From: Planctomycetota bacterium
Lineage (GTDB): Bacteria > Planctomycetota > Planctomycetia > Gemmatales > Gemmataceae
Length of the DNA stretch: 38,683 bases
Reading direction: 5' to 3'
Assembly: GCA_021413735.1 (NCBI GenBank)
Contig: JAIOPV010000251.1
Span: forward strand, 1-38,683
This document shows, one piece after another, positions 5,126 through 36,887 of this stretch. The notes beneath the pieces were generated by a model. That model saw only the letters and a program-made list of their open reading frames with translations, was not told where the DNA came from and ran no database searches. Position 1 is the stretch's first letter, and each line of letters starts with the position of its first letter. Position numbers and translations under genes: made by a program.

Positions 5126-5157
5126 TCAGGGGACGAAACATTGTCGCGTTTGCGGTG

Positions 5158-5182
5158 TCGCGGCCGCCCCAGCGGGGCGGCG
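5158..5182. repeat. GCCGCCCC/GGGGCGGC palindrome
   Basis: A short GC palindrome of the same family as 1163-1183, in the 64-nt gap between the exosortase and the Wzz-like gene. Confidence 0.5.
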
Positions 5183-5189
5183 AATACTG

Positions 5190-11388: not shown

Positions 11389-13029
11389 TCAAGCGATCGA
11401 GCCGCTGACCTTCGACTTCTTATCGTCTTCGTCGATCTTGGTGACCATCACCTCGGTCGTGAGCATCAAGCCAGCGATGCTTGCGGCGTTCGTCAACGCA
11501 CTGCGAGTCACGCGAAGTGGGTCGATGATGCCAGCCTTCAGCATATCAACGTACTTGTCGTTATTCGCGTCGTAGCCGATGTTCGGGTTCTTCTCACCCT
11601 GTGCCGCGACCTCGTCGGCGATGACCGCGCCATCCTTGCCGCAGTTCTCGGAGATGATGCGGATTGGCTTCAGCAGCGCCCGTGCGATGATCTCGGCTCC
11701 GATTCGCTCGTCGCCCTTCAGCTTCTCGGCCAGAGCTTCGACGACCGGAACGCATCGCAGCAGAGCCGTGCCACCGCCAGGAACGATGCCTTCAGCGACA
11801 GCCGCACGGGTTGCGTGCAGAGCGTCTTCGACGCGGCCCTTGGTCTGCTTCATCTCGGCTTCGGTCGCAGCGCCAACCTTCACGATCGCAACGCCGCCGA
11901 CCAGCTTCGCGAGACGCTCGGAGAACTTCTCCTTGTCGTATTCGCTTTCGGTCTGATCCATTTGCGTGCGGATCGTCTGAACGCGAGACATGATTGCAGC
12001 CTTGCGTTCCTTGTTCTTCTCTGCTTCGACGACCAGCGTCGTGCTTTCCTTCTCGACCACGACCTGATTCGCGGTGCCGAGCATTTCCAGCTCGATGTTC
12101 TCCAGCTTGATCCCGCGATCTTCACTGACGAACGTGCCACCGGTCAGCACGGCGATGTCTTCCATCATGGCCTTGCGGCGATCACCGAAGCCGGGCGACT
12201 TGACCGCACAGACTTCGAGGAGTTGCTTCAGACGGTTGACGACGAGCACCGCGAGTGCTTCGCTTTCGACGTCTTCGGCGATGATGAGCAGCGGCCGGCG
12301 AGCCTGCACAACCTTGTCGAGAATCGGCAGCATCTCGCGGACGTTCGAGAGCTTCTTTTCGAGCAGCAGCACGAGAACGTTCTCTTGCTCCCACTTCATG
12401 TCGGCGTTGCCGTATGGGAAATACGGCGAGATGTAGCCCTTGTCGAACTGCATGCCTTCAACGAAGTCGAGTTCGGTCTTGGAGGTCTTGCCTTCCTCGA
12501 CGGTGATGACGCCGTCCTTGCCGACCTTCTCGAAAGCGTTCGCCATCAACGCGCCGATTTCCGGGTCGTTGTTGGCGGAGATGCTGGCAACGTTCTGCAT
12601 CTCCTCTTTCTTGGTGAGCTTCTTCGTGAGCGCGGTTTCGAGATACTCGACGGCCTTGGCGACCGCCTTGTCGATGCCACGCTTGACGGTCATCGGGTTG
12701 GCCCCGGCGGTGATGTTCCGCAGGCCTTCCTGATAGATCGCCAGTGCCAGCACGGTTGCGGTGGTGGTGCCGTCGCCAGCGGTGTCGCTCGTCTTCTGTG
12801 CGACCGCGTTGACGAGCTTCGCGCCCATGTTCTCGAATGGGTCGGCGAGGTCGATTTCCTTGGAAACCGTGACGCCGTCCTTGGTGACGGTTGGCCCGCC
12901 AAAGGACTTGTCGATGATGACGTTTCGGCCTGTTGGCCCGAGGGTGATCCCAACCGCGTGGGCGAGCTTCTCAGCGCCGCTGAGGAGCTTCTTGCGAGCG
13001 TCGTCGGTATAGAGCAGTTGCTTCGACAT
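11389..13029 (-). CDS. groEL: Chaperonin GroEL paralogue 1, without a GGM tail
   Basis: This 546-aa Hsp60 should form the ATP-driven double-ring folding chamber with GroES. It keeps [11 protein letters not shown] of the nucleotide site, the ATP-hydrolysis Asp in RVEDALHATRAA and the GIVPGGGTALLR motif. It diverges in the apical/intermediate part (VEAEKNKERKAAIMSRVQ). It ends ...DDKKSKVSGSIA in place of the Gly-Gly-Met tail, which suggests a specialised paralogue. The start is ATG 13029 (MSKQLLYTDDARKKLL) with GGAG 7 nt upstream. An ATG at 13074 would fall in a repeat. It is third in the run groEL2-groES1-groEL1-dnaJ-grpE. Confidence 0.93.
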   Translation of the reverse strand: MSKQLLYTDDARKKLLSGAEKLAHAVGITLGPTGRNVIIDKSFGGPTVTKDGVTVSKEIDLADPFENMGAKLVNAVAQKTSDTAGDGTTTATVLALAIYQEGLRNITAGANPMTVKRGIDKAVAKAVEYLETALTKKLTKKEEMQNVASISANNDPEIGALMANAFEKVGKDGVITVEEGKTSKTELDFVEGMQFDKGYISPYFPYGNADMKWEQENVLVLLLEKKLSNVREMLPILDKVVQARRPLLIIAEDVESEALAVLVVNRLKQLLEVCAVKSPGFGDRRKAMMEDIAVLTGGTFVSEDRGIKLENIELEMLGTANQVVVEKESTTLVVEAEKNKERKAAIMSRVQTIRTQMDQTESEYDKEKFSERLAKLVGGVAIVKVGAATEAEMKQTKGRVEDALHATRAAVAEGIVPGGGTALLRCVPVVEALAEKLKGDERIGAEIIARALLKPIRIISENCGKDGAVIADEVAAQGEKNPNIGYDANNDKYVDMLKAGIIDPLRVTRSALTNAASIAGLMLTTEVMVTKIDEDDKKSKVSGSIA

Positions 13030-13048
13030 TCTGTATCTCCAGAAGAAA

Positions 13049-13133
13049 CTCACGCAAAGCCGCGAAGCCGCCAAGAGAGATCAGTTCAAACTCGACGGCT
13101 CTCAATCTTTGCGACTTTGCGGCTTTGCGTGAG
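13049..13133. repeat. CACGCAAAGCCGC inverted repeat
   Basis: CTCACGCAAAGCCGC (13049-13063) is perfectly inverted at 13119-13133, and pairing extends about 13 more bases with mismatches. It occupies most of the 121-nt gap between groES1 and groEL1. It is one of several distinct intergenic hairpin families in the window. Confidence 0.7.
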
Positions 13134-13150
13134 ATAAGTGTTGTGGGGGA

Positions 13151-13468
13151 TTACTTTGCGAGCTTCGCGAGGATGTCGCCTTCGCGGAGAATCTTGAAAT
13201 CCTTGCCGACGACTTCCACATCAGAACCGCTGTACTTGCCGTACAGAACGGTGTCGCCGACCTTCACGGCCAACGGGAGACGGTTGCCGTCGTCGTTCAG
13301 CTTGCCTGGGCCGACCGCGACAACCTTGCCCTGTTGGGGCTTCTGTTTCGCGGTGTCGGGGAGAAGGATACCGCCAGCGGTCTTCTCTTCGGCTTCGGTC
13401 GGCTCAACCACAATGCGGTCGTCGAGCGGCTTCAGGGTCAGTTGTGCGGGCTCAGGTTTCTTCGCCAT
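13151..13468 (-). CDS. groES: Co-chaperonin GroES, copy 1
   Basis: This 105-aa Hsp10 caps GroEL rings. Family features are [20 protein letters not shown], the mobile loop ending [24 protein letters not shown], and the closing [15 protein letters not shown]. An 8-residue N-terminal extension (AKKPEPAQ) precedes the usual start of homology. GAGGAG lies 7 nt before the ATG. It sits between two groEL genes read in the same direction, 122 nt from groEL1 and 138 nt from groEL2, an unusual EL-ES-EL order. Confidence 0.95.
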
Positions 13469-13527
13469 TGGTGGCTCCTCGGGGTCAGTGCGTTATTCGT
13501 GTTTTGTTTGTTGTGTTGTGCGGCTCA

Positions 13528-13600
13528 GGTTAGCGTCAGCCCCAACGGGGCTGCGCCAAACTCGCTCGGGGGCTCAGCCCCGTTGGGGCTGACGCTAACC
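13528..13600. repeat. Perfect 26-bp inverted repeat with CCCCAACGGGG core
   Basis: The arms 13528-13553 and 13575-13600 are exact reverse complements, each carrying the self-palindrome GCCCCAACGGGGC. The element fills the gap between groEL2 and groES1 and could form a very stable hairpin that separates their expression levels. It is the clearest member of the CCCCGTTGGGG family. Confidence 0.8.
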
Positions 13601-13606
13601 CCGCGA

Positions 13607-15358
13607 TCACATCATGCCGCCCATGTTTGGCATGCCACCCATTCCGCCCATGCCTCCCATTCCACCCATGCCGCCGCCGTGGTGGTCGTCGTGATGATCG
13701 CCGCCCTTGCCCTTCGGCTCGGGGATATCCGCGATCATGCACTCGGTGGTGAGCAACAGGCAGGCGACGCTCGCCCCGTTCTGGAGCGCACTGCGGGTCA
13801 CCTTCACCGGGTCGATCACGCCGTCCTTGCGGAGATCGGTGTACTCGTCGGTGTCGGCGTTGTAGCCGTAGTTCTTGTCTTTCTGCTTCGAGATATTGTT
13901 GACGACAACCGTGCCGTCGATGCCCGCGTTCTCGGCGATCATTCGTGCCGGCATCGCCAACGCGTTGTACAGCACTCGCAGACCGTGAGCCTCGTCGCTG
14001 TCGCCCTTCATGCCCTTCTCAAGCACCTTGCGAGCGTTCAGCAGTGCAACACCGCCGCCAGGAACGATGCCTTCCGCGATGGCCGCACGGGTTGCGTGCA
14101 GGCTGTCGTCGTACAATGCCTTGCGTTCTTTCATGGCGGTTTCGGTCGCGCCACCAACCTTGATGACGGCCACGCCGCCGGCCAACTTCGCGAGCCGCTC
14201 TTGCAGCTTGTCGCGGTCGTACTCGCTCTCGGTCTTGGTGATTTCCTTGCGGATCAACTCGGCTCGGCCGTCGATGGCCTTCTGATCGCCCTTGCCTTCG
14301 GTGACGGTCGTGTTCTCGGCGTCGATGCGAATCTTCTTGCAGCGACCCAAGCTCGCAACAACCGTCGGCTCGGCCGACTTGCCCTTCTTGATCTGATCTG
14401 GCGTCGGCTGCGTCATCGCTTCGAGAACGATGCCCGTGTCCTTCATGATCGCGGTGCCGCCGGTGAGAACGGCGATATCTTCGAGCATGGCCTTGCGGCG
14501 ATCACCGTAACCGGGTGCCTTCACCGCACAAACCCGCAACACGCTCTTGAGCTTGTTGTAGACCAGCGTTGCGAGTGCTTCGCCCTCGAAGTCCTCAGCG
14601 ATGATGACCAAGGGGTCTTTCTGCTGACGTGCCCATTCGAGCAGCGGAATCAGCGACTTCACGTTGCTGATCTTGTCTTCGAAGATGAGGATGTACGGGT
14701 TCTCGAACTCGCAGGTAACCTCAGCTTCGTTGTTGACGAAGTGTGGCGACAGGTAGCCGCGATCGAACTGCATGCCCTGAACGACGCTGACGACGGTTTC
14801 GGCGGTCTTGCCTTCTTCGAGGGTGATGACTCCGTCTTTCGCGCCGACCTTCTTCATGGCCTCGGCGAGCTTCTGACCGATTTCCTTGTCGTTGTTCGCC
14901 GCGATGGTGGCGACTTCAGTGATTGCCTTGTTGTCCTTCGGGTCGATCGGGTCGGCGAGCTTGTGCAGCTCCTTGATGACCTCTTCGACACCCTTCTGGA
15001 TGCCGCGAACGATGGCCATTGGGTCGCCGTCGGCGGCAACAGCCTTGAGCCCTTCGCGGAAGATGAACTCGGCGAGAACGGTGGCGGTGGTGGTGCCGTC
15101 GCCGGCGACATCGGAGGTCTTGCTGGCAGCCTCCTTGACGAGCTGGGCGCCCATGTTCTCGAATGGGTCTTTCAGTTCGATGTCTTCAGCGACGGTGACG
15201 CCGTCCTTGGTGATGGTTGGGCTGCCCCAACCTTTGTCGAGGATGGCGTTTCGACCGCGTGGCCCGAGAGTAGCTCGCACGGCGCGAGCGAGTTTGCTGG
15301 CTCCGCTGAGGAGCTTCTGTCGGGCGTCGTCGGCGTAGGAAAGTTGCTTGGAAGCCAT
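13607..15358 (-). CDS. groEL: Chaperonin GroEL paralogue 2, with His/Gly/Met-rich tail
   Basis: This 583-aa GroEL is the first gene of the minus-strand chaperone series. It has [15 protein letters not shown], the hydrolysis Asp in [11 protein letters not shown] and [12 protein letters not shown], so it should be an active ATPase. Two features are unusual. One is an insertion of about 17-20 residues in the apical domain ([19 protein letters not shown]) before the [11 protein letters not shown] strand. The other is a long tail with DHHDDHH then repeated GGM. Start ATG 15358 has AAAGGA 9 nt upstream; an ATG nine codons earlier is less likely. A sigma-54-type promoter lies at 15412-15427. Confidence 0.94.
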
Positions 15359-15411
15359 TGTGGTATGTCCTTTCGATTCGCCCAAAGCGTGGGGATCGTC
15401 CGGTGGCTCTC

Positions 15412-16825: not shown

Positions 16826-17995
16826 ATGCCACGCCACTTGCCTGTTTTGGCCCTTTCACTTGGGCTTGCTGTCGCCGTGCTGGCGTGCATCAGTCCCGTG
16901 TTCGGGCAGTCGCAACCGGCACCAGCCGAACCAGTCGCATTTCCGACGGTGAATGTCGAATCCATCGCTGGCGGAACCACTATCAAGGGAAAACTTCGGC
17001 TGACCGCGATCACGCTCAAGACCGACATCGGCAGCAACACGATCGACCTGAAGCACGTTCGCCGCATCACGTTTCAGAAGGATCCCGAAGGCACATCGCA
17101 GGACAACATCCAGCTCGCCGACAAGTCGGTGATTCGCGGACACGTTACCGCTGAGCAATTCGTGGTGGATCGCGACGGGGGTGGCGAGGTGACGTTCAAG
17201 AAGGCCGAGGTTCGCGAAATTCGCATCGTGAATGAAGTGGCCGTCTCGCTGGTGGGCATTCTGGTTGGCCTGCTGACGCTGACCGCAATGGAGATCATCC
17301 TCGGCGTCGATAACATCGTGTTCCTGGCGATCGTGGTCGGCAAACTGCCGAAGCCGCAGCAACCGAAGGCTCGCAAGCTCGGTCTGGCGGCGGCGCTCGG
17401 CACGCGGCTGTTGCTTCTCTTCTCGTTGACATTCCTCCTCGGCCTCACGACTCCCGTGTTCACGCTTCCCGATTTCGGGTTCCTTCACGACGCGGAGGCT
17501 CGTGAAGTTTCCTGGCGAGACATCATCCTGTTGGCCGGCGGGTTCTTCTTGATCGCCAAGAGCGTGAAAGAGATGCACGAGAAGCTCGAACACGCCAAGC
17601 AGGAACACAGTGGCAACCCCGCCGCGCCGTCCGGAAAGGTGGTCAGCTTCGCGTGGACGATCGTGACCATCGCGGCCATCGACATTCTGTTCTCGCTCGA
17701 CTCAGTGGTGACGGCTGTGGGTATGGTCGAGGAGTTGTGGGTGATGGTGACCGCGATGGTGTTGGCGATGCTCGTGATGCTGTACTTCGCGAAGAGCATT
17801 GGCGACTTCGTGGATCGTCACCCGACGGTGAAGGTGCTCGCGTTGAGCTTCTTGATTCTGATCGGTGTGATGCTCGTGGCGGAGGGTTTTGGTCAGCACA
17901 TGGACAAGGGCTACATCTACGCGGCGATGGCATTTGCCGTGGTGGTCGAGATGGTGAACATGAAACTGCGAAAACCCGCGAAGAAGGCGGTTTAG
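16826..17995 (+). CDS. TerC-family integral membrane protein with N-terminal exported domain
   Basis: This 389-aa protein has a signal peptide (1-27, cut near VFGQ) and a periplasmic beta-rich domain (about 40-135, with LKTDIGSNTIDLKHVRRITF and LADKSVIRGHV). A complete TerC domain follows from about residue 138. TerC signatures are EIILGVDNIVFLAIVVGKLP (156-175) and DILFSLDSVVTAVGM (286-300), with acidic residues inside the membrane expected to bind metal. TerC proteins export manganese or load it onto exoenzymes and are tied to tellurite/metal stress. The N-terminal part resembles small domains attached to many planctomycete envelope proteins (impression from memory) and is not part of standard TerC. 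A terminator-bearing leader precedes it. Confidence 0.85.
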   Translation: MPRHLPVLALSLGLAVAVLACISPVFGQSQPAPAEPVAFPTVNVESIAGGTTIKGKLRLTAITLKTDIGSNTIDLKHVRRITFQKDPEGTSQDNIQLADKSVIRGHVTAEQFVVDRDGGGEVTFKKAEVREIRIVNEVAVSLVGILVGLLTLTAMEIILGVDNIVFLAIVVGKLPKPQQPKARKLGLAAALGTRLLLLFSLTFLLGLTTPVFTLPDFGFLHDAEAREVSWRDIILLAGGFFLIAKSVKEMHEKLEHAKQEHSGNPAAPSGKVVSFAWTIVTIAAIDILFSLDSVVTAVGMVEELWVMVTAMVLAMLVMLYFAKSIGDFVDRHPTVKVLALSFLILIGVMLVAEGFGQHMDKGYIYAAMAFAVVVEMVNMKLRKPAKKAV

Positions 17996-28547: not shown

Positions 28548-28886
28548 GCGGCCTTCTTGTCGTGAAAAACGGTGGCGTACTGAATGCGTGCGCAACGGGG
28601 TTCAAATGCAGGTGTCTCCCCCTCACCCGCCGCTCGAAGACACGCGACGACCTCTCCCCCATCAAAGCATGGGGGAGAGGTGGGGCTCTCCGACTTCTCT
28701 CGAAGGCAATGGATTTGTTTGAGTTGAAGAGAAGACGCTGCGCCCTCACCTCGCCCCCATGCTTTGATGGGGGAGAGGTCGGCGAGGCTTTGCGAGCCGG
28801 GTGAGGGGGAGTCACCTGCACATCCTCCCAGGCGTCGCTCCCCAGCTCGCAATTCGTGTCGTGGTGTCATGCGGCCTTCTTGTCGT
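28543..28886. mobile_element. About 300-bp non-coding hairpin element with 21-bp target duplication
   Basis: A 21-nt direct repeat (28543-28563 and 28866-28886, starting GTCATGCGGCC) flanks 302 nt of non-coding DNA. The copy at 28866 is the true end of the FAD oxidoreductase gene. The other copy carries the ATG of the epimerase plus a remnant of the same DKKAA codons. Inside, a 23-nt near-perfect inverted repeat (28607-28629 / 28798-28820) bounds two hairpins in opposite orientation (CCTCTCCCCCAT/ATGGGGGAGAGG). No transposase is present, so it would move by a source elsewhere (MITE-like). Confidence 0.6.
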
Positions 28887-29949
28887 ACAGGTCGAGGCGT
28901 GCGTTGCCGGTGATCGTCGCGAACACTTGCCGGATCTGCTCGAAGCCATCACGCAAAAGGAACCCTGCGTCGCGGCTCTTGGCACCCAGCACGAAATAGC
29001 CCGGCCCTTCGACACGCAGGTTCAGGTCAGGTCGGTAGCCGACGTTCGCGATCACACGCTCCACTGAGTACGAGATTGGCTTGCCGTTGCTCCGGCCCGC
29101 GATGCTGAAGCCCTTGTCGGGGCCGTGCGAAACAACCTCATCGAGCACCGTCTGCGGATGGAATTCGAGGTTGCCGTCGCAGCGAGTGGCGAGCGAATTC
29201 GCCTTCACCGCAAGGCGATCGCGTTCCTTGAAGGGGTCGTTCGCGATGCGTGGCAACGGTTGCCCACGAGCACCCCTCGTAATCCAGAACACCCACGTCG
29301 CGGAGTGTTCGACCGCCAGTGCTGCGAGAGCGCAGATCGTCGTTGCTGCGGAGTAGCCATCACCAATCAGTGCGATGCTGCGACCCGCGTAGTGGGCTTT
29401 GCGTTCGCCCGGGATGTCGTCGATGTTGAATGCGATCTGCGAACGTGCCGTCAGTTCGCCGACCGCTGGAATGCCGGCGTCGCCGAGCCACTTCGGTGTG
29501 CTGAACGTGCCTGTGCAGTCGAGGACGAAGTCGGCAGTGTCGATGCGTTCCTGTCCCTTCGCGGCCCGCACCAACAACCGGAATCCCTTGGTCACGCGGC
29601 CAACGTGAAGCACGGTGGTTTCTTGTTGCAGGCTTTCGAGAAGCTGTTCAGTTTCGCCAAGCGGCACGAGATAGGCGTCACGAAATTCGCGGCCGGTGAT
29701 GATGTCGGTGGCAGCAGGGAGCGTGCGGTTCGGCTTCTCGCGAAGAAGTGCCTTCAACCCGAGCGAAGTGGCGTTCACCCCAAACGGCGTGAACATGCGG
29801 ACGTGGCCCCACTGACGAATGTGGTCGGCAATCGCGCCTCGATCGTACACAGCGACCGTGAAGCCAGCGGCTTTCGCGTAGAGTGCCGCTTCCAGTCCGA
29901 TTGGCCCGGCACCGAGTACAGCCACTTTCTGTGGCGCAGCCTTGGACAT
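28867..29949 (-). CDS. FAD-dependent pyridine-nucleotide oxidoreductase-like protein
   Basis: This 360-aa flavoprotein opens KVAVLGAGPIGLEAALYAKA (GxGxxG FAD site) and has a second dinucleotide fold SIALIGDGYSAATTICALAA. It carries a DFVLDCTGTFSTPKWLGDAG segment and a C-terminal FAD contact near FVLGAKSRDAGFLLRDGFEQ. The layout resembles Trx-reductase/lysine-hydroxylase-like flavoproteins; no CxxC redox pair is visible, so it is not a disulfide reductase. I chose ATG 29949 (MSKAAPQKVAVLG) with GGGGAG upstream. Probably it was once coupled to the epimerase. The substrate is unknown. Confidence 0.8.
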   Translation of the reverse strand: MSKAAPQKVAVLGAGPIGLEAALYAKAAGFTVAVYDRGAIADHIRQWGHVRMFTPFGVNATSLGLKALLREKPNRTLPAATDIITGREFRDAYLVPLGETEQLLESLQQETTVLHVGRVTKGFRLLVRAAKGQERIDTADFVLDCTGTFSTPKWLGDAGIPAVGELTARSQIAFNIDDIPGERKAHYAGRSIALIGDGYSAATTICALAALAVEHSATWVFWITRGARGQPLPRIANDPFKERDRLAVKANSLATRCDGNLEFHPQTVLDEVVSHGPDKGFSIAGRSNGKPISYSVERVIANVGYRPDLNLRVEGPGYFVLGAKSRDAGFLLRDGFEQIRQVFATITGNARLDLYDKKAA

Positions 29950-29972
29950 CCCTGTCTCCCCAGAAAACACGA

Positions 29973-30105: not shown

Positions 30106-33100
30106 CTACACCGTCGCCGGTTCCGGGTTCAACCCAAGTCGCGAACGCAGCTTCTCGCTCACACTGTCGAGCCACTCCGCCGACGGCAACCCATACGGCC
30201 GGAACTTCTCCGGGCGGTCCTGATCTTCCACCAGGAATAGCGCCCGATTGCGACCCAACCGCGACGCTGCGGGCGTGTCCATCAACGTGCTCGAATCGGT
30301 CGGACTCATCTGGAACAGCACACGCATTCCGAACTCGCGGAGTTGCGGCCGCTCGAAGGCACGGTTCAAGTTCGTCAGCGAATCGCACCACACGATGAGA
30401 TGGATGCCCACCGGCGGGCCATCTCGCAGGATCGCACTGAAGCGCTCCGCTGGCGTCGGTTCACGTTCCGCACCGCGACGTGCGAAGCCGAAATCTTCCT
30501 CCGATTTCCGCAGTTCCCGGAAGCGATGGATGCCGAACACGAACAGGAACCGCGGCGTTCGATCCGTCGATTCACCCTTCTGCCGACGGTCCATTTCGAT
30601 TGCGAGTTCCTTGATCGCTTCGGGCAAACCCGAACGAGCTGGTGCCACGATACCCGGCAACTTCGCGGCGAGATGCGAGAGATAATCCGCGTCTGGGCTG
30701 TCGTCCGGGGTGCCATCGAGAATGGTGAATGGGTTTCCTCCCCTCTCCCCTTGCGGGAGAGGGGTTGGGGGTGAGGGGTTGTCTTTCGCTTCATACCCCT
30801 CACCCGTCGGCGAAGCGCCGACACCCTCTCCCGCAAGGGGAGAGGGACGAAAACCCAGTTGCGGCGACAGTCCGATCACTGCCGACGTGAACAGTCCACG
30901 TGCCGCCTCTTCATTCTGACCGATCACCAACAGGTTCGCACCGCCAAGCGCCCGGAAGAGAGCCGCGGTGGGGTCTTTGATCGCGACCGGTTCGCCGAGC
31001 CACGCCGCCGGTGCCTTCGAGACAGTCTTCGTGCTGAGAACGCGAGTGAGGGCGTGGTTGTTCGCGAGATCGGCCGATGTGTTGCCCGCGAACACCAGCG
31101 GTGGCGGCCAGCGATCACCGGCACGGTCGCGAAGCTCAGTAAGTAGCTGTTCGCGTTTCTCTTCGGAGAGCCACACCACCTGGAACGGGTCGTTGCCTTC
31201 CACGAGGCCGTTCTGGTCGTTGTAGATCGCCTCGCCCGGCCGCGACAGCAACCGAGCCGCCGAGTTGTCCTTGCTCAAGATGAGTTGGGCGTCGGCGTCG
31301 GAGCATTGCAGTGCGACCCGAACCGCCATCTGGTCGATGGTGCTGCGTGCGAGCGAATACGCCCCGCCGAGCGTCTGCGAGCCGAGCACGACGTGCAACC
31401 CGAACGCACGACCCTGGCGAACGAGGCGGTCGAGCAACAGCGACGCTTCCTGGGCGACCTTGTCGTCTTCGGTGAAGAACGCCTGGAATTCGTCGACGAT
31501 GAGCAGGATTCGCGGCGTTTTCTCCTCGGGATGTGCAACGCGATAACCGGCGAGATCGTTGACGCCACTGTCGCGGAACTTCTCGCCACGTTCCCGCAGG
31601 ATGCCGTCGAGTCGTTGCAGCACGCTCAGCCCGAACTCCCGTTCGCTCTGAATCGCAACCACGCGAGCGTGCGGCAACCGATACGTCGCGTACCACTGGA
31701 ACTCGACGCCTTCCTTGAAGTCGATCAGGTACAGTTCAGCTTCGTCAGGGCTGTACGTGAGCGCGAGGTTCGTGATGAGTGCGTGCAGCAGTGTGGACTT
31801 ACCGGAGCCGGTTTTGCCTGCGACGAGTGCGTGCTGTGCGGTGCCGCGACCCAGGTTGAACGATTGTCGGCGAGTCGCACCGGCACGGCCAACGGGAACC
31901 TCGAAACCCTTCGCGGCGCTCGCGGTCCATTCTTCGCCCGGCTTCGGGGCGATGTACTCGAACGGCACCTGCACCCGCACCGCGTCCTTGCTCGCCTTGC
32001 CGATTCGCTGCACGATCTGCGTGACCGCAGCCGTACCCGGAGGCGGGTCAAGCACAATCGGGAACGTCGCCAGTGTGGGATCTTTCGGCGTGAACGCTCC
32101 GTCTTTCCACGACAGCGTGAAGCTCGCGGCTTCGATGTCGGCGATGTTGAAATCGCGGGGCATCGCGAGGCGTGTGTCGGCGCTGACGAGCGTGCAGACG
32201 CCACACGATGGACCGCTCTGCACGATACTGATGAGACGCTTCGCGGCGTCAGGGCTGAAGCCAGCGGGGAAGTTCGCGATGACCAGCACGCGGTACGGTT
32301 CGGCCACTTCACCGGCCGCACGGTTGTAGTCCTCGATCGTCTTGTACTGGTTCCGCAGATACTTCTGAATGACGCTCGCGATGTGATCCGTGAGATCCAC
32401 GAGCCGTTGCTCGATCTGCATCGGCTCCGTCCAGATTTGCGACGTGACCAGCTTCTCGTCGTAGTCCGCGAGATGCATGAACGCCGCGAAGTTGTCGCCG
32501 AGGCCGACGGGGTCGATGATCGTGAACCGCACCTTGCCCGGTGGCAACCCCGTGAGGAATCGCAGCATCATCGACTGAAGCGCCGACACCGCAACCGCTC
32601 GGCCTTCGTCGCGAGAACGCAGCAGTACCGAGCAGCGATCCGGGAACGGCAAGAACGCGGGCACGGGTTCCGATAGTTCTGCTGGTGGCGCGAGCCTGGC
32701 ATCGGCTGAGATGCCATCGGGCACTGCTTTCATGTCCATGAGCCAGTCGCCGCAACGCACTCCCTGCGGAACCCGCGACACGAGCGCACGGTCGGGGCGG
32801 GCCACTTCCTCCCACGATGGAAACAGCTCGTGCCCTTCCTGTCGGAGTGCGTCGAACTCCTCCTTCACGCTGTTCGTGGCGGCTTGCCATGCGGCCGCCG
32901 CGGCGCTCCAGGCAACATCGCGAGTCGCGGTTGCCGCAGCCATCCGCTCCGCGTGAACTTCCTCAACTCGCTTCAACTCGTTGGCGAGCCGAGACTCGAC
33001 GTTCGCTCGCTGTTCGCGGTAGTTGCTTTCCTCAATCTTCGTCTCCGATGCGAGAAGATGATCGAGCGTCTCGATCTGCGTTGCGTGTTCGGTTTCGAGG

Positions 33101-35124
33101 CGTTCGATCTGAGCGTCGAACGCTTTCTTCTGCGACTCGAACGACGGCAGGTAATGCTCATCGTTGTCGGCGCGTTTGCGGTTGTGGCGTTCGGTGAGCC
33201 GGGTTCGTTCCGCAACGTATTCCTGTGCCGCGAAGTCGTTCAGCAAGCGGATGGCCCGGTTCGCGTCGGCGAGTTGTTCGTCGAGCGCCTTGCCCACGCG
33301 AAGCGTTGCGTTTCTGCCCACGGATCGCAGGAGCATCCACAACGCGACGCCGACCACGAGCGCGACGCCACCGGTCACGGCTCCCGCCGTCGGAGGAGCA
33401 AGAAACGCGAACGACACCGCACCAACCGCCGCCCCCACGAGCAGCGAAGCGACCAATCCCTTGAACCCGCACCACGGCGGCACGACCAACTGACCGAGCT
33501 GTTCGAGCAACGACTCCGCGACCTGAATGGTCTTGTTCATCCGCGTGATCGGGTCATCGTCGGAAGGCATCGCCACTTCACCGGTGTACTCGATGTCGTG
33601 CCGCTTCACGCCCGTGCGTGCCAGCAGTGGTTCTGCCTCTGCCCAGATCGCCGTGACACGTTCCGAACCGCCCGCGGCCTTGCGTTGCAGCGCGTCGAGT
33701 TGTTCCTTCGCGGCCTTGTCGCCGGCCTCCAGAAGCGAATCGTACTTCCAGATTTTGTCCTCGTATTCCGCGCGTGCCTTTTGTTCCGCACCCTTGAATT
33801 TCTCGGTGAGCGTGCGTCGCGTGTCCTGCACCATGCGATCCGCTGCGAGCGTTTCCGACTCGTGTTTCGTGGTGATGTCGGCGAGCGTTTCCGCGTGCGT
33901 CGTATCGATGCGACCGAGTTCGCTTTGCTGAGCGCTGGCGTTCGACTTCCTCGCGCGGCCAACCTCGCGTTCGGCCTTATCGACGGCCGTGTCGAAGCCA
34001 GCCTTCAGTTCGGCCTCGCTTGCGGCCCTGGCGCGAACCGCGTCAGTGAGCCGTGCCACGGCAGCGCGTTCCCGGTCGAAATAGTTTTCGGACATGGGCC
34101 TTGTTCCCATCTTGCGAAGACCGGTTGGGCTGCCGGGGGTGGTGGAAGGTTTCGGAACGGGCGGCGGCGTGGGGCTGCCGAGTTCCCAGAGAAGTTGATC
34201 GAGTGCGGCCCCGACTTCCGCCGCGGTCTGATGCCGATCTGCGGGATTGCGTGCGAGCATCTTGCGAACGATTGCATCGAGTTTCGCGGGCACGTCTTTG
34301 CGAAGCGAGAGCGGCGATGGCGGCGATACCGCTCGCGACTGTTGGAGTTTTTCCGCGATTGTCTTGCCAGGAAATGGCAACTCGCTCGTGAGCAGGAAGT
34401 ACAGCGTTGCGCCAAGGCTGAAGACATCGGATCTCGCATCGACCTTTCGCGCATCGTCGGCTTGCTCGGGCGAAGCATAGTCGGGTGTGCCGACGAATCG
34501 CGGCGATGCTCCATCTTCCGCGTCGTTCCCGGCAGCCATCACTCGCGCCAAACCGAGATCGAGCACCTTCACGCGCGGCGGCTTGTTGGTCTTCGGTTCC
34601 CCTGGCAACGGACTCGGTGAAACCATCAAGTTCGCCGGTTTGATGTCGCGGTGAATCAGCCCTCGCTCGTGCGCATGCTGAAGACCCTCGGCCGCCTGAC
34701 GTATGTAATAAACGGCATCTGCGATCGCGAGAGGACCAACAGTCCGCACAAGGCGTTGGAGATCGAGGCCAGGCACATACTCCAACGCAAGATAAGGAAA
34801 CGGACTGTCGAGTTCCGTGTGGTAAACGGTGACGATGTTCGGATGGTTGAGGCTCGCGGTCGCCTGCACTTCATGGGCGAACAGCAGGCGATTGCCATCG
34901 ACTTGCAGGGCATCCGGGTTGATCGCTTTCAGCGCGACGATTCGATTCAGCGAGATTTGACGAGCCTTGTAAACGATGCCCATACCGCCGCGGCTGAGTT
35001 CGCCGAGCAACTCGAAACCTGGCACGATCCGACCGGGGAACAACGCTCCTGATTCCGCCGCCGAGTGTGCCAACTCCGATGGCGATTGCACAATGGTTTT
35101 CGGCTCCTGCGTTTCGTCCGACAC
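30106..35124 (-). CDS. Ser/Thr kinase - coiled coil - EssC/FtsK-type ATPase fusion
   Basis: This 1672-aa protein starts with a Hanks-type kinase (about 35-315): the Gly loop SRGGMGIVYKA, VALK with Lys66, HRDIKPAN (Asp160), DLG (189-191) and GTPDYASPEQ. Two long charged coiled coils (about 345-505 and 610-760) flank a pair of membrane segments (about 555-601). ATPase domains follow. A degenerate first domain has FTIIDPVGLGDNF. A canonical FtsK/EssC domain has Walker A GKTGSGKST (1103-1111), LIDFKEG and Walker B LLIVDE (Asp1211-Glu1212). A third degenerate domain begins near NLLVIGQNEEAARGLF. This is the EssC plan with a kinase where FHA domains usually sit. GTG 35124 has GAGG upstream; an ATG at 35292 would overlap the preceding gene. 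Residues 1425-1464 are repeat-encoded. Confidence 0.88.
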   Translation of the reverse strand: MSDETQEPKTIVQSPSELAHSAAESGALFPGRIVPGFELLGELSRGGMGIVYKARQISLNRIVALKAINPDALQVDGNRLLFAHEVQATASLNHPNIVTVYHTELDSPFPYLALEYVPGLDLQRLVRTVGPLAIADAVYYIRQAAEGLQHAHERGLIHRDIKPANLMVSPSPLPGEPKTNKPPRVKVLDLGLARVMAAGNDAEDGASPRFVGTPDYASPEQADDARKVDARSDVFSLGATLYFLLTSELPFPGKTIAEKLQQSRAVSPPSPLSLRKDVPAKLDAIVRKMLARNPADRHQTAAEVGAALDQLLWELGSPTPPPVPKPSTTPGSPTGLRKMGTRPMSENYFDRERAAVARLTDAVRARAASEAELKAGFDTAVDKAEREVGRARKSNASAQQSELGRIDTTHAETLADITTKHESETLAADRMVQDTRRTLTEKFKGAEQKARAEYEDKIWKYDSLLEAGDKAAKEQLDALQRKAAGGSERVTAIWAEAEPLLARTGVKRHDIEYTGEVAMPSDDDPITRMNKTIQVAESLLEQLGQLVVPPWCGFKGLVASLLVGAAVGAVSFAFLAPPTAGAVTGGVALVVGVALWMLLRSVGRNATLRVGKALDEQLADANRAIRLLNDFAAQEYVAERTRLTERHNRKRADNDEHYLPSFESQKKAFDAQIERLETEHATQIETLDHLLASETKIEESNYREQRANVESRLANELKRVEEVHAERMAAATATRDVAWSAAAAAWQAATNSVKEEFDALRQEGHELFPSWEEVARPDRALVSRVPQGVRCGDWLMDMKAVPDGISADARLAPPAELSEPVPAFLPFPDRCSVLLRSRDEGRAVAVSALQSMMLRFLTGLPPGKVRFTIIDPVGLGDNFAAFMHLADYDEKLVTSQIWTEPMQIEQRLVDLTDHIASVIQKYLRNQYKTIEDYNRAAGEVAEPYRVLVIANFPAGFSPDAAKRLISIVQSGPSCGVCTLVSADTRLAMPRDFNIADIEAASFTLSWKDGAFTPKDPTLATFPIVLDPPPGTAAVTQIVQRIGKASKDAVRVQVPFEYIAPKPGEEWTASAAKGFEVPVGRAGATRRQSFNLGRGTAQHALVAGKTGSGKSTLLHALITNLALTYSPDEAELYLIDFKEGVEFQWYATYRLPHARVVAIQSEREFGLSVLQRLDGILRERGEKFRDSGVNDLAGYRVAHPEEKTPRILLIVDEFQAFFTEDDKVAQEASLLLDRLVRQGRAFGLHVVLGSQTLGGAYSLARSTIDQMAVRVALQCSDADAQLILSKDNSAARLLSRPGEAIYNDQNGLVEGNDPFQVVWLSEEKREQLLTELRDRAGDRWPPPLVFAGNTSADLANNHALTRVLSTKTVSKAPAAWLGEPVAIKDPTAALFRALGGANLLVIGQNEEAARGLFTSAVIGLSPQLGFRPSPLAGEGVGASPTGEGYEAKDNPSPPTPLPQGERGGNPFTILDGTPDDSPDADYLSHLAAKLPGIVAPARSGLPEAIKELAIEMDRRQKGESTDRTPRFLFVFGIHRFRELRKSEEDFGFARRGAEREPTPAERFSAILRDGPPVGIHLIVWCDSLTNLNRAFERPQLREFGMRVLFQMSPTDSSTLMDTPAASRLGRNRALFLVEDQDRPEKFRPYGLPSAEWLDSVSEKLRSRLGLNPEPATV
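30733..30852. repeat. Palindromic repeat inserted in frame within the kinase-ATPase gene
   Basis: CCCCTCTCCCCTTGCGGGAG...GGTGAGGGG and CCCCTCACCC...CTCTCCCGCAAGGGGAGAG face each other over 120 nt. The insert is a multiple of three and translates as SPLAGEGVGASPTGEGY... PSPPTPLPQGERGG, a sequence with no ATPase homology. It lies early in the third ATPase-like domain and is related to the hairpin element at 28564-28865. Confidence 0.75.
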
Positions 35125-35167
35125 GTTCCGCCTCGGAGTTGGGGATATGTGATCGCGATTCTCCGCG

Positions 35168-35392
35168 TCAGTAATTAGAGTATTCGCACTCCTGGCGGAC
35201 CTGAATGAAAAGCGTTGCGAGTTGGTCGATCGCACGCAGCGTATCGGAGACGGCACGGTCGAGTTCTTCCACGACCTGTTCGCCATGCTCACGACGGACG
35301 CCGTCGTCCCAGTCGTCGGCGGTGGCGTCCCACTTCGCGCGTGCGGTCTTCTGGGCGTCGTAAATCTGACTGCGTGTGGTGCCGAACCTCAT
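35168..35392 (-). CDS. 74-aa helical protein, possible WXG100-like partner
   Basis: The product is almost entirely helical and charged: MRFGTTRSQIYDAQKTARAK, a mid-chain ADDWDDGVRREHGEQ turn, then a long helix ending QVRQECEYSNY. The W-D-D turn and following helix parallel the W-R-D turn of the 90-aa WXG100-like protein upstream (36041-36313), so it could be a diverged heterodimer partner. This is an inference, since identity is low. Its ATG overlaps the stop of the 189-aa gene (ATGA), implying translational coupling, and it ends 43 nt before the kinase-ATPase start. Confidence 0.65.
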   Translation of the reverse strand: MRFGTTRSQIYDAQKTARAKWDATADDWDDGVRREHGEQVVEELDRAVSDTLRAIDQLATLFIQVRQECEYSNY

Positions 35393-35958
35393 GATGGTTG
35401 CTCGGGGTTTGGCGGAGTGATTCCGGGTGGCGCTGCCGTTGGTTGCACGGATGTCGCGGACGGTGCGGGAGCGTAATCGGTTCGCATCCCCGCGTAGCTT
35501 TCCAACGCACCGATACGCCGAACGAGATCGGCCAGCGCTCGCGGCAACCCCGCTTCGAGGAAGTTCGCCAGCCGCCGACCGGAGCCTGAATACGTCTCAT
35601 CGACCAACTTCGGAAGCCGACTCAACCATTGCCGGCACTTCAGAACTTGATCCTCGGCGTGTTCCAGTCTAGCCTTCGCCATGCGAAGATTCTTCTCCTG
35701 CACGGTGCAATCTGGCTCGCGACCATCCCAGTTCACGAACTTCCGCTGCGAGAGTTCGGCTTTCGCGCGGGTGACTTCATCCTCGAAGTCACGGATCGCG
35801 AACTGCCAGCGTGACAGTTGCTCTGCGAGCCAGTCGTGAGCACGCTGAATTTCCATCTCCACACCTGCAAGCGCCTCGCTGAGCGTGTCGCCATAGGTGG
35901 AGAGCGCGGCGTGCCACTCGCGAACCGCGTCGATGGATCGAACGTCTGCCCCGTCCAT
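35389..35958 (-). CDS. 189-aa coiled-coil protein of the WXG100/EssC-like operon
   Basis: I do not recognise a named family. The first 150 residues are predicted helical and heptad-like (REWHAALSTYGDTLSEALAG, RDFEDEVTRAKAELSQRK, KARLEHAEDQVLKCRQWLSR), with several Trp residues. A Pro/Ala/Thr-rich tail (PAPSATSVQPTAAPPGITPP) follows. No signal peptide or membrane segment is seen. Position and form suggest a substrate or structural partner of the WXG100-like protein, or an adaptor for the kinase-ATPase coiled coils. Stop and next start overlap as ATGA. Confidence 0.75.
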   Translation of the reverse strand: MDGADVRSIDAVREWHAALSTYGDTLSEALAGVEMEIQRAHDWLAEQLSRWQFAIRDFEDEVTRAKAELSQRKFVNWDGREPDCTVQEKNLRMAKARLEHAEDQVLKCRQWLSRLPKLVDETYSGSGRRLANFLEAGLPRALADLVRRIGALESYAGMRTDYAPAPSATSVQPTAAPPGITPPNPEQPS

Positions 35959-35962
35959 AAGT

Positions 35963-36032
35963 CGTAAAGTCGAAAGTCAAAAAGTCGTAACGTCAACCGC
36001 CGGGTTCTGGCTTTATGACTTTCGACTTTACG
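35963..36032. repeat. CGTAAAGTCGAAAGTCA inverted repeat
   Basis: The 17-nt motif at 35963-35979 is perfectly inverted at 36016-36032, in the 82-nt gap between the WXG100-like and coiled-coil genes. Adjacent partial copies (AGTCGTAA) surround it. It may modulate transcription within the operon. Confidence 0.7.
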
Positions 36033-36040
36033 ATCTGCGA

Positions 36041-36313
36041 CTACCTTTGTGAGAGGTATTCTTCGATTCGTTCCGCTTTCCGCAGCAGGAACGGAATGTG
36101 TTCCTCGGCTACTTCCAAGAAACGGTCGATGACCTGCATCGTCGCCTCGAATTCCTGGCGGAAACGGTCGTGTTCCTGGTCTCGCCACGAATCGCCAAGG
36201 CCGACGAGTTGCCCGTGCAGCCCCGCGACGCCTGCTTGCAGGTCGGCGTTGAAGCGTTTCAGATTCGCCGCGAACCGTCGTAGCTCTGCTGGATCGACGA
36301 TCGCCTGAGACAT
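36041..36313 (-). CDS. WXG100 (ESAT-6-like) family protein
   Basis: This 90-aa protein has the size and helix-turn-helix hairpin of WXG100 secretion substrates. Helix 1 is PAELRRFAANLKRFNADLQA, the turn is LGDSWRDQEHDRF with Trp43, and helix 2 is FEATMQVIDRFLEVAEEHIP. The third turn residue is Asp45, not the usual Gly. In firmicutes and actinobacteria such proteins are exported as dimers by EssC/EccC ATPases. The same operon here encodes an EssC-like ATPase, which supports the assignment. GGAGAG lies 6 nt before ATG 36313. Confidence 0.8.
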   Translation of the reverse strand: MSQAIVDPAELRRFAANLKRFNADLQAGVAGLHGQLVGLGDSWRDQEHDRFRQEFEATMQVIDRFLEVAEEHIPFLLRKAERIEEYLSQR

Positions 36314-36369
36314 GGCAGACTCTCCGAAACACCACTGACATGAAAAGACGCAACGAGGGTGATCCCTGA

Positions 36370-36375
36370 ATTATA
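36370..36375 (-). promoter_or_regulatory. -10 box upstream of the WXG100-like gene
   Basis: On the minus strand this lies in GCGGTATAATTC, a perfect TATAAT about 57 nt before the ATG. No good -35 is visible. The 11-mer GCGGTATAATT occurs again upstream of the zinc-ribbon gene. Confidence 0.45.
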
Positions 36376-36432
36376 CCGCGACGCGGCCGTTGCGTTGGTG
36401 GGATTCGGAGGAGTTCGGAAGAGGTTCCCAAG

Positions 36433-36454
36433 TTTTCGCCGCTTGCGGCGAAAA
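36433..36454 (-). terminator. Hairpin after the zinc-ribbon gene
   Basis: TTTTCGCCGC-TT-GCGGCGAAAA is a perfect palindrome with T and A runs, 13 nt beyond the zinc-ribbon stop. It is a plausible bidirectional terminator. It shares CGCCGCTTGCGGCG with the repeat at 23042-23089. Confidence 0.6.
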
Positions 36455-36467
36455 TCGAATCGTTCGT

Positions 36468-36887
36468 CTACTCGGCGTGCGTTTCGTCGGCGTCGTCCGG
36501 TGTGACCTTCGGAGGCTTTCTGAAAATGGGCATGGGAACGGTCTTCGGAAGCGGTTGTTCTTCCTCCGACTCATCGACATCCGCGATGTTTTCGGAGGTG
36601 TGTTCCTCCGAGGCTTCTTCCTCGTTGTTCTCTTCTTCGTCCTCTTCGTCGTTCTGTTGCTCAGTGTTGGGGGGCCGTCTCAGCATCGGCACCTGCTTCG
36701 TCTTCGGCAGCGGTTCCGATTGCTGCTGAGCGATTCGTTCAACGGTGATGGTTATCTCATCGTCATCGTCTTCGTCAACGACGAGCGAGAATTGTTTACC
36801 GCACTTGGGACAGTTTGGTGTATATCGCCCTGGCTTCAGATTCTTCGGTGTAAGAACAGCTTTACAAAACGGACACGCGACGTTCAT
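36468..36887 (-). CDS. Zinc-ribbon protein with acidic disordered tail
   Basis: This 139-aa protein begins with a four-Cys ribbon: ACPFCKAVLTPKNLKPGRY then NCPKCGKQFSLVV (Cys5, 8, 26, 29), of the MJ0042/zinc-ribbon type. The rest is an acidic, Glu/Asp-rich tail containing two copies of a PLPKT..VPM motif (PLPKTKQVPMLRRPP and PLPKTVPMPIFRKPP) that flank the acidic stretch. No enzyme motif is seen. It is first in the minus-strand series with the WXG100-like and kinase-ATPase genes, so a scaffold or kinase-substrate role is possible but unproven. GAGGG lies 6 nt before ATG 36887. Confidence 0.75.
   Translation of the reverse strand: MNVACPFCKAVLTPKNLKPGRYTPNCPKCGKQFSLVVDEDDDDEITITVERIAQQQSEPLPKTKQVPMLRRPPNTEQQNDEEDEEENNEEEASEEHTSENIADVDESEEEQPLPKTVPMPIFRKPPKVTPDDADETHAE

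What the first reader, a model, noticed from the sequence alone, without database searches (positions are those of the whole stretch)
30106..36887. WXG100/EssC-like operon in which a Ser/Thr kinase replaces the EssC FHA module
Five genes run in one direction: zinc-ribbon protein, WXG100-like protein, coiled-coil protein, 74-aa helical protein, and a 1672-aa fusion of Hanks kinase, coiled coils, two membrane segments and three FtsK/EssC-type domains, of which only the middle keeps full Walker A and B. Firmicute EssC has paired N-terminal FHA domains that read phosphothreonine; here the same place is taken by an apparently active kinase. This suggests secretion gated by the enzyme's own phosphorylation, in a cell with a planctomycete envelope. 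I recognise no EccB/D/E, MycP, EsaA, EssA or EssB gene beside it. I do not know of a described system with this layout.
Basis: partly seen in the sequence, partly recalled or inferred. Interest (0 to 1): 0.87.

Follow-up and report, generated by a model that had tools for sequence, protein, structure and literature searches.

The report
Planctomycete WXG100 secretion-like cassette with kinase
This is a four-gene, type VII secretion-like cassette that recurs in the same gene order across the bacterial phylum Planctomycetota, and in this bacterium and a few relatives its motor protein has also gained a fused protein kinase that might switch it on and off.

Summary
In detail: five co-directional genes with the stated content. 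The core is not a curiosity of one genome. WXG100, a coiled-coil hairpin protein, a 74-aa WXG100-like protein and an EccC/EssC-type ATPase form a cassette conserved in Planctomycetota: all three partners lie upstream on the same strand in 38 of 39 family loci and 49 of 58 named loci with enough upstream sequence, always in that order where all are found. The ATPase matches EccC best by Foldseek; only its middle NTPase domain keeps Walker A and B.

Relatives without the kinase show no FHA domain (26 scanned), and the fusion was found in six genomes only, all of the window's GTDB family. The kinase keeps its catalytic motifs, so self-gated export remains possible but untested.

The layout is not new in kind: Bell et al. 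2024 (PMC11090510) describe it as an extension of CoCoNuT loci and cite a stand-alone form. New here: the stand-alone version across planctomycetes with predicted membrane segments, and the kinase fusion. Best reading: a minimal T7SS-like exporter. Secretion itself is inferred, not shown.

The parts
36468..36887 (-). Zinc-ribbon protein, 139 aa. Not part of the wider cassette; related zinc ribbons were found in 7 of the 40 other family loci read, upstream of the WXG100 gene: stand-alone in 2 and as the N-terminus of a kinase in 5
36041..36313 (-). WXG100 protein, 90 aa; the bend motif is W43-R44-D45, not W-x-G
   Evidence: Pfam PF06013 E 1.4e-8 over cut-off; invariant columns of 30 rows; PDB relatives HP0062, EsxB, EsxA
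35962..36033 (.). Palindromic repeat between the WXG100 and coiled-coil genes (30-nt arms, 87% complementary)
   Evidence: 7 places in the genome, this one included, for a 20-nt arm stretch at up to 1 mismatch, 0 in the reversed control
35389..35958 (-). Coiled-coil protein, 189 aa: predicted two-helix hairpin (residues 7-73 and 85-158) with a variable Pro-rich tail; proposed cargo or cargo domain
35168..35392 (-). 74-aa helical protein; W21, W28 and D30 invariant in 30 rows; probable remote WXG100 relative, proposed partner protein
30106..35124 (-). Kinase-ATPase fusion, 1672 aa from GTG 35124
34228..35013 (-). Hanks-type Ser/Thr kinase domain, residues 38-299; ALK, HRDIKPAN, DLG and SPE motifs present
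30109..34095 (-). ATPase proper, from Met344; this ATG sits where unfused relatives start
33316..33471 (-). Two predicted membrane segments (552-580, 581-603) between coiled-coil stretches
   Evidence: Kyte-Doolittle only
31924..32793 (-). First NTPase-like domain (approximate limits), no Walker motifs found
   Evidence: co-linear with EccC 4nh0
31105..31926 (-). Middle NTPase domain (approximate limits) with Walker A (31795-31818) and Walker B (31489-31506)
30181..31098 (-). Third NTPase-like domain (approximate limits), no Walker motifs found
   Evidence: aligned to EssC D3 6tv1, Z 17.3
30730..30857 (.). Palindromic repeat inside the ATPase gene (34-nt arms, 91% complementary), read through as a Pro/Gly-rich insert in the third domain

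Best explanation
A minimal, membrane-anchored type VII secretion-like exporter. Shown: the conserved four-gene cassette, WXG100 homology, an EccC/EssC-type fold with one complete ATPase site, predicted hydrophobic segments, and an intact kinase motif set on the window's ATPase. Inferred: the ATPase forms a ring at the inner membrane; WXG100 and the 74-aa protein act as EsxA/EsxB-like partners; together they present the coiled-coil hairpin protein, whose C-terminus is the exchangeable part; ATP hydrolysis in the middle domain drives it out of the cytoplasm. In this lineage a Ser/Thr kinase domain, probably copied from a stand-alone kinase of the same genome, was added to the ATPase N-terminus and may tune assembly or opening by phosphorylating the cassette's own proteins. 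How cargo would cross the outer membrane is unknown.
For: Genome level in the family: ATPase and WXG100 both in 69 of 95 genomes, ATPase only in 6, WXG100 only in 1, neither in 19 (Fisher p 7e-14, relatedness ignored); the coiled-coil gene has the same pattern. All three partners upstream in 38 of 39 and 49 of 58 loci; order WXG100, coiled coil, 74-aa, ATPase in 39 of 39 and 52 of 52 loci that have all four. Foldseek: EccC 4nh0 E 1.2e-31 along the whole model, EssC 4lya 3e-21, FtsK 5e-15. PDB profile hits of the WXG100 family are HP0062, EsxB and EsxA. The 74-aa family matches the WXG100 family by hhalign at 95.6% probability, against 1.2% for the reversed control. Plasmid relatives of the ATPase in other phyla have a WXG100 relative beside them in 4 of 5 fetched loci; in Helicobacter the gene between carries a WHH/colicin-type nuclease domain and is followed by a SUKH-type gene. 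In 3 named planctomycete loci the coiled-coil protein carries an Imm33-like domain. Gly loop, Lys, HRD and DxG motifs are present in 5 of 5 fused kinases with a readable N-lobe.
Against: No secretion was tested here. WXG100 and the coiled-coil protein are single-copy in the family genomes that have them (one genome, G029, has a second WXG100 match below cut-off), unlike toxin-delivering T7SS with many substrates. No YukD or EssB; no outer-membrane component was identified, though none was systematically sought. The planctomycete coiled-coil HMM hits only the Rhodococcus protein among the plasmid coiled-coil proteins, weakly (11.9 bits), and not the Helicobacter or Caballeronia ones; the 74-aa HMM hits none of the 73-77-aa plasmid proteins, so those are matched by position only. 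On 30-row alignments the hhalign probabilities against WXG100 were 10% and 11%. Foldseek TM-scores to EccC 4nh0 are only 0.36-0.37 (rmsd 15 A), so the domains are not arranged alike. The middle domain alone is closest to FtsK motors (Z 29.6). The coiled-coil model has no PDB match at E 0.001.
Confidence: 0.55

Rival explanations
1. It is an intracellular defence or stress module of the CoCoNuT/TerY-P kind: the ATPase and its small helical partners handle an effector inside the cell and nothing is exported.
For: Bell et al. 2024 describe the same gene set (EssC-like ATPase with only the central domain active, two WXG100-type proteins, coiled-coil nuclease) inside Type III-A CoCoNuT operons with vWA, PP2C and kinase genes (PMC11090510 section 10); the Caballeronia relative has vWA, PP2C, kinase and CARF genes and the Rhodococcus AH-ZY2 one has two TerD-family genes nearby.
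Against: The planctomycete ATPase has predicted membrane segments, which the CoCoNuT ATPases are reported to lack. The Caballeronia vWA, PP2C and CARF proteins find no relative within 6 kb of the cassette in 101 loci; its kinase finds relatives in 7. The authors themselves infer secretion from the WXG100 genes.
Confidence: 0.2
2. The ATPase is an FtsK/HerA-like DNA pump and the small proteins are its regulators.
For: The middle domain aligns best to FtsK motors (Z 29.6, 279 residues).
Against: The three-domain chain is matched by EccC/EssC before FtsK; EccC/EssC models score 95-102 bits against 23 for FtsK; close pairing with WXG100.
Confidence: 0.07
3. The kinase domain does not gate the ATPase: it is a passive or separately useful passenger, and the working ATPase may be made from the retained internal ATG (Met344). 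This rival concerns the kinase only and can hold together with the best explanation.
For: The Met at the unfused start is kept in the 5 fusions whose junction I read; 36 of the 41 family loci compared lack the fusion; several fused kinases have longer branches than the stand-alone paralogues; fusion is patchy, 3 changes on the ATPase tree.
Against: Gly loop, Lys, HRD and DxG motifs are kept in 5 of 5 readable fused kinases; kinase genes also lie within 1.4 kb upstream of the WXG100 gene in 5 related loci; kinases are common in other T7SS types (PMC11217815).
Confidence: 0.35

Closest known systems
[quoted passage not shown] 2024, PMC11090510), and the stand-alone form credited there to Anantharaman et al. 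2012
   Same: EssC-like ATPase with three NTPase domains of which only the central one is predicted active, N-terminal coiled coil, a WXG100 protein plus a second one without the motif, and a coiled-coil protein that can carry a nuclease domain
   Different: Here stand-alone, with predicted membrane segments in the ATPase, no relatives of the Caballeronia vWA, PP2C or CARF proteins nearby, usually no recognised domain on the coiled-coil protein, spread within Planctomycetota, and a kinase fused to the ATPase in a few genomes
T7SSc (Garrett et al. 2024, PMC11217815)
   Same: One WXG100 gene, EccC-type ATPase without FHA, and a Ser/Thr kinase with conserved active site in the locus
   Different: T7SSc has seven core components including a YukD-like protein and a separate membrane kinase TscD, and is reported only from Bacillota; here the kinase is on the ATPase and YukD was not found
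T7SSa (ESX) and T7SSb (Ess/Yuk)
   Same: WXG100 plus membrane-bound EccC/EssC-type ATPase
   Different: No EssB/YukC or YukD homologue found in the genome; EccB test had no ringing control; only one NTPase domain with both Walker motifs
Helicobacter pylori HP0062, said to be clustered with an FtsK/SpoIIIE-domain protein (PMC3397514, passages read)
   Same: ESAT-6-like hairpin in a diderm bacterium with the same W-R-D bend motif; best PDB match of the window's WXG100 family
   Different: Function unknown there; I did not compare its gene neighbourhood

Membership tests
Type VII secretion system (T7SS) | EccC/EssC-type multi-domain FtsK-family ATPase | tested here: met
   Foldseek top hits EccC and EssC, profile hits EccC/YukB before FtsK; NCBIfam EccC/EssC models match but below their cut-offs; TM-score to EccC low (0.36)
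Type VII secretion system (T7SS) | ATPase anchored in the membrane | tested here: inconclusive
   Two hydrophobic segments by Kyte-Doolittle, in most of the 26 aligned ATPases as one or two stretches; no dedicated predictor or experiment
Type VII secretion system (T7SS) | Gene for a WXG100 protein beside the ATPase | tested here: met
   38 of 39 and 49 of 58 loci
Type VII secretion system (T7SS) | YukD/EsaB ubiquitin-like component (in most types; T7SSd lacks it, PMC11217815) | tested here: not met
   0 matches in the window's genome, 95.74% complete; B. subtilis control rang
Type VII secretion system (T7SS) | Type-specific membrane partner EssB/YukC (T7SSb) | tested here: not met
   0 matches; B. 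subtilis control rang
Type VII secretion system (T7SS) | Type-specific membrane partner EccB (T7SSa) | tested here: inconclusive
   0 matches, but no control genome rang
Type VII secretion system (T7SS) | EccD, EccE, MycP, EsaA, EssA | not tested
   no search was made for them
Type VII secretion system (T7SS) | ATPase-dependent secretion of WXG100 proteins | not testable with these tools
   needs a secretome experiment
EssC with N-terminal FHA (T7SSb and others) | FHA domains at the ATPase N-terminus | tested here: not met
   No FHA model at E 0.01 in any of 26 ATPases or in the window's full protein at E 1
WXG100 family (36041-36313) | Pfam WXG100 score over the curated cut-off | tested here: met
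   35.3 bits against 27.3
WXG100 family (36041-36313) | W-x-G motif at the bend | tested here: not met
   W-R-D invariant in 30 of 30 aligned members; HP0062 has the same W-R-D (PMC3397514)
WXG100 family (74-aa protein) | Detectable homology to WXG100 | tested here: inconclusive
   hhalign 95.6% on large alignments, reversed control 1.2%; 10% on smaller ones; Pfam WXG100 in 3 of 30 members, best E 0.0014
LXG-type effector (coiled-coil protein) | LXG domain (Pfam PF04740, number recalled) | tested here: inconclusive
   Not among the 25 of 38 families shown for 29 members; long helical hairpin predicted
CoCoNuT Type III-A extension | EssC-like ATPase with only the central domain active and N-terminal coiled coil, with two WXG100-type proteins | tested here: met
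   against PMC11090510 section 10; the second WXG100-type protein rests on the inconclusive row above
CoCoNuT Type III-A extension | Flanked by TerY-like vWA, PP2C and CARF genes | tested here: not met
   0 of 101 loci within 6 kb, with the Caballeronia proteins as queries; of 14 other window frames scanned in Pfam, none matched these. McrB/McrC were not sought
Hanks-type Ser/Thr kinase | Catalytic Lys, HRD..N and DFG-type motifs | tested here: met
   ALK 64, HRDIKPAN 158, DLG 189

The most novel reading that the evidence does not exclude
Planctomycetota carry a widespread, single-copy, single-cargo type VII-like exporter in a diderm envelope, and in the window's lineage the export motor is switched by its own covalently attached kinase: a self-gated secretion ATPase, possibly made both with and without the kinase from one gene.
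Probability: 0.25. Interest if true: 0.78.

Novelty: new variant of a known kind. Interest (0 to 1): 0.6.

Why it matters
Garrett et al. 2024 (PMC11217815) treat T7SS as systems of Bacillota and Actinomycetota; Zhang et al. 2012 (PMC3482391, passages) add Chloroflexi and 'other bacterial lineages' whose footnote I did not see. My searches of the held papers showed no listing that describes one in planctomycetes; subscription papers were not searchable. A conserved WXG100/EssC cassette in a diderm phylum would widen the known range of T7SS-like export and offers a very small version, four genes, in which to ask what the minimal machine is. The kinase fusion is a natural experiment on phospho-control of such a motor: related strains with and without it can be compared directly.

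Tried and rejected
Kinase replaces FHA: rejected. Kinase-EssC as the conserved unit: rejected. The fusion was seen in 5 of the 41 family loci compared (window plus 40), plus G015, and in 4 of the 80 named loci, which I match to four of the same six genomes. The other family genomes I judged only by frame length, and frames cut by contig ends are undecided. A long frame in G243 (1577 aa) and one in G168 (1469 aa) hold no kinase match.

Single or multiple origin of the fusion: unresolved. The ATPase tree of 42 rows needs 3 changes; the six fused kinases form one side of the kinase tree at support 48/65, not significant. Linkers of the window, L043 and L046 look alike by eye, which would favour one origin with losses. 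My pattern for the APE motif matched only 3 of the 6 fused kinases, though the other motifs matched.

Which EccC domain the active middle domain corresponds to: unresolved. Sequence favours ATPase 1 (70 against 54 bits); the co-linear structural alignment favours ATPase 2.

Extra conserved component in the flanks: none found. The top families were a kinase (16 loci) and the downstream oxidoreductase (15 loci) in 101 pooled loci (frames of 80 aa or more within 6 kb), after I dropped 19 of the 80 named loci as duplicates by my own contig matching. Other WXG100 genes in the window's genome: none at E 1.

Coiled-coil hairpin: no Foldseek PDB hit at E 0.001; VIA was not run on it. Phage relatives of the ATPase are distant (best 262 bits on an unannotated record, others under 100 in the rows shown). 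The plasmid ATPases do not show the paired hydrophobic segments. Anantharaman 2012 and Iyer 2004 were not held; what I say of the former comes from PMC11090510.

Loci without the full cassette: of 58 named loci with room, 5 have none of the three partners (L135, L144, L145, L157, L173), 2 only the 74-aa gene (L156, L162), 2 lack WXG100 (L167, L172); a relaxed search found no convincing match for the missing genes. L067 lacks a WXG100 gene beside the ATPase; its genome G093 has one on another contig. Dropped from these counts for under 2.6 kb upstream: 22 of the 80 named and 2 of the 41 family loci.

Full report
WHAT IS THERE. Five genes run on the minus strand from 36887 to 30106. The WXG100 gene passes Pfam's cut-off (35.3 bits against 27.3); the large protein has a kinase domain (residues 38-299, E 4e-44) and an FtsK_SpoIIIE domain (E 2.6e-31). 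EccC and EssC models give 95-102 bits against 23 for FtsK, although none reaches its curated cut-off. Two hydrophobic segments lie at 552-580 and 581-603, and one Walker A and one Walker B lie in the middle domain. The genome has 9.8 Mb and well over 100 kinase-domain matches. Named relatives with the closest cassettes are titled Planctomycetaceae and Gemmataceae (L113, L114), so I take the window to be from Gemmataceae; that is inference.

THE CASSETTE. With the ATPase without its kinase as query, 75 of 95 genomes of the family match at E 1e-30; with the alignment, 66 of 392 genomes sampled across the phylum match at E 1e-20. Upstream of the ATPase on the same strand lie the 74-aa gene, the coiled-coil gene and the WXG100 gene: all three in 38 of 39 family loci and 49 of 58 named loci with at least 2.6 kb upstream, in the order WXG100, coiled coil, 74-aa, ATPase in 39 of 39 and 52 of 52 loci that have all four. 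The two sets overlap; I matched 19 of the 80 named loci to family genomes by contig. By genome in the family, ATPase and WXG100 occur together in 69, ATPase alone in 6, WXG100 alone in 1 and neither in 19 of 95; the coiled-coil gene has the same pattern. The 6 and the 1 may be fragmented assemblies; I did not check each. The coiled-coil protein gives one match in each of its 70 genomes, WXG100 one in 69 of 70 (G029 has a second, below cut-off). Flanking genes are less conserved: at most 16 of 101 pooled loci share any flanking family in my test. I therefore treat the four genes as the unit and the zinc ribbon as a local addition.

THE PROTEINS. The ATPase model (895 residues, pLDDT 85.3) matches EccC along its whole length (4nh0, E 1.2e-31), then EssC (4lya, 5fv0) and FtsK; TM-scores to 4nh0 are low (0.36-0.37), so the domains are packed differently. 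VIA ranks FtsK motors slightly higher for the middle domain alone, aligns EccC along residues 1-872, and aligns the third domain to EssC D3. None of 26 ATPases shows an FHA domain. The WXG100 family has an invariant W-R-D in place of W-x-G and its best PDB relatives are HP0062 of H. pylori, EsxB and EsxA. In the 74-aa family W21, W28 and D30 are invariant in 30 rows; with 105 against 96 sequences hhalign gives 95.6% probability of homology to WXG100, against 1.2% for reversed sequences, while 30-row alignments gave only 10%. The coiled-coil protein is a confident two-helix hairpin (pLDDT 90.7) without a clear PDB match and with a variable tail.

RELATIVES ELSEWHERE. On plasmids, related ATPases occur in Rhodococcus, Caballeronia, Helicobacter and Deinococcus. 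Four of the five loci fetched have a WXG100 relative beside the ATPase (81, 54, 43 and 22 bits with the planctomycete HMM; only the Caballeronia one passes Pfam's cut-off). The coiled-coil and 73-77-aa proteins of these loci are matched by place and look: the planctomycete coiled-coil HMM hits only the Rhodococcus AH-ZY2 protein, weakly (11.9 bits), and the 74-aa HMM hits none of the small ones. In Helicobacter the long protein ends in a nuclease domain (WHH E 1e-11, colicin DNase E 1e-8) and is followed by a SUKH-type gene. In Caballeronia the locus also has vWA, PP2C, kinase and CARF genes, the CoCoNuT context; the vWA, PP2C and CARF proteins find nothing beside the planctomycete cassettes (0 of 101 loci). 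In three named planctomycete loci, L155 and L183 titled Phycisphaerales and L170 titled Planctomycetota, the coiled-coil protein carries an Imm33-like domain (E 1e-10 to 1e-14). These suggest a hairpin domain with an exchangeable C-terminus. In the other planctomycete loci read I saw mostly short low-complexity tails, so what is delivered, if anything, is open.

THE KINASE. Of the window and 40 family loci compared, 5 have the fusion (window, L042, L043, L046, L057); G015 is a sixth, cut by a contig end. The conserved start Met of unfused relatives is kept inside the 5 fusions whose junction I read. The window's genome and each of the 7 genomes searched, with or without the fusion, carry a stand-alone kinase 52-63% identical to the fused one, so a copy of that gene is the likely source. 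The kinase tree does not settle whether fusion happened once (48/65 support), and the ATPase tree needs three changes. The five fused kinases with a readable N-lobe keep the Gly-loop, Lys, HRD and DxG motifs. In five related loci a zinc-ribbon kinase lies within 1.4 kb upstream of the WXG100 gene. So phosphorylation is a recurring neighbour of this cassette in this clade, but nothing here shows that it gates export.

WHAT IS KNOWN. Garrett et al. 2024 (PMC11217815; abstract, first part of Results and passages read) describe T7SSa-j in Bacillota and Actinomycetota, several with kinases; FHA domains are absent from T7SSa, c, g and h. Poulsen et al. 2014 (PMC3935865, passages) found WXG100 almost only in Actinobacteria and Firmicutes, with a few in Chloroflexi. 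Zhang et al. 2012 (PMC3482391, passages) list T7SS also in 'other bacterial lineages' under a footnote I did not see. Bell et al. 2024 (PMC11090510, section 10 read whole, passages elsewhere) describe this ATPase-WXG100-coiled-coil set as a CoCoNuT extension, without membrane segments, and credit Anantharaman et al. 2012 with the stand-alone form. Kim-type structural review PMC3397514 (passages) notes HP0062's W-R-D motif and an FtsK/SpoIIIE neighbour. My literature searches (long lists shown in part) listed no paper whose title or abstract start describes such a system in planctomycetes; most listed papers I did not open. I did not see Anantharaman et al. themselves.

VERDICT. Real, widely conserved and, as far as I could search, under-described; a new variant of a known kind. 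The kinase-for-FHA story is not the key; the planctomycete minimal cassette is.

Noticed in passing
window 30730-30857: A palindromic repeat (34-nt arms) sits inside the ATPase coding sequence and is read through as a Pro/Gly-rich insert; similar strings occur in related ATPases and in tails of coiled-coil proteins.
   Followed up: partly
window 35962-36033: A palindromic repeat between the WXG100 and coiled-coil genes; an arm stretch occurs at 7 places in the genome, some as facing pairs (C36, C277), against 0 in the reversed control.
   Followed up: partly
window 28867-29970: Pyridine nucleotide-disulphide oxidoreductase-like gene directly downstream of the ATPase, same strand; a homologous family is seen in 15 of the pooled loci.
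   Followed up: partly
L155, L170, L183 (coiled-coil proteins): In three named planctomycete loci (two titled Phycisphaerales) the coiled-coil protein carries an Imm33-like C-terminal domain.
   Followed up: partly
L195 (Helicobacter plasmid stretch): WXG100 relative, long protein with nuclease domain, SUKH-type gene, 77-aa protein and EssC-like ATPase in one row: a compact polymorphic-toxin-like version of the cassette.
   Followed up: partly
G000 C176:7285-8247: Stand-alone kinase 62% identical to the fused kinase; a likely paralogue of its source.
   Followed up: yes
window 16826-17992 (+): TerC-family membrane protein gene (Pfam E 1e-45), about 12 kb from the operon and probably unrelated, though Ter genes neighbour a Rhodococcus relative of the cassette.
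   Followed up: no
window 2771-6128 (-): Exosortase EpsH-family gene beside a 784-aa protein with a CbiA/ParA-type nucleotide-binding domain.
   Followed up: no
window 11389-15385 (-): Two adjacent cpn60-type chaperonin genes near a DnaJ gene.
   Followed up: no
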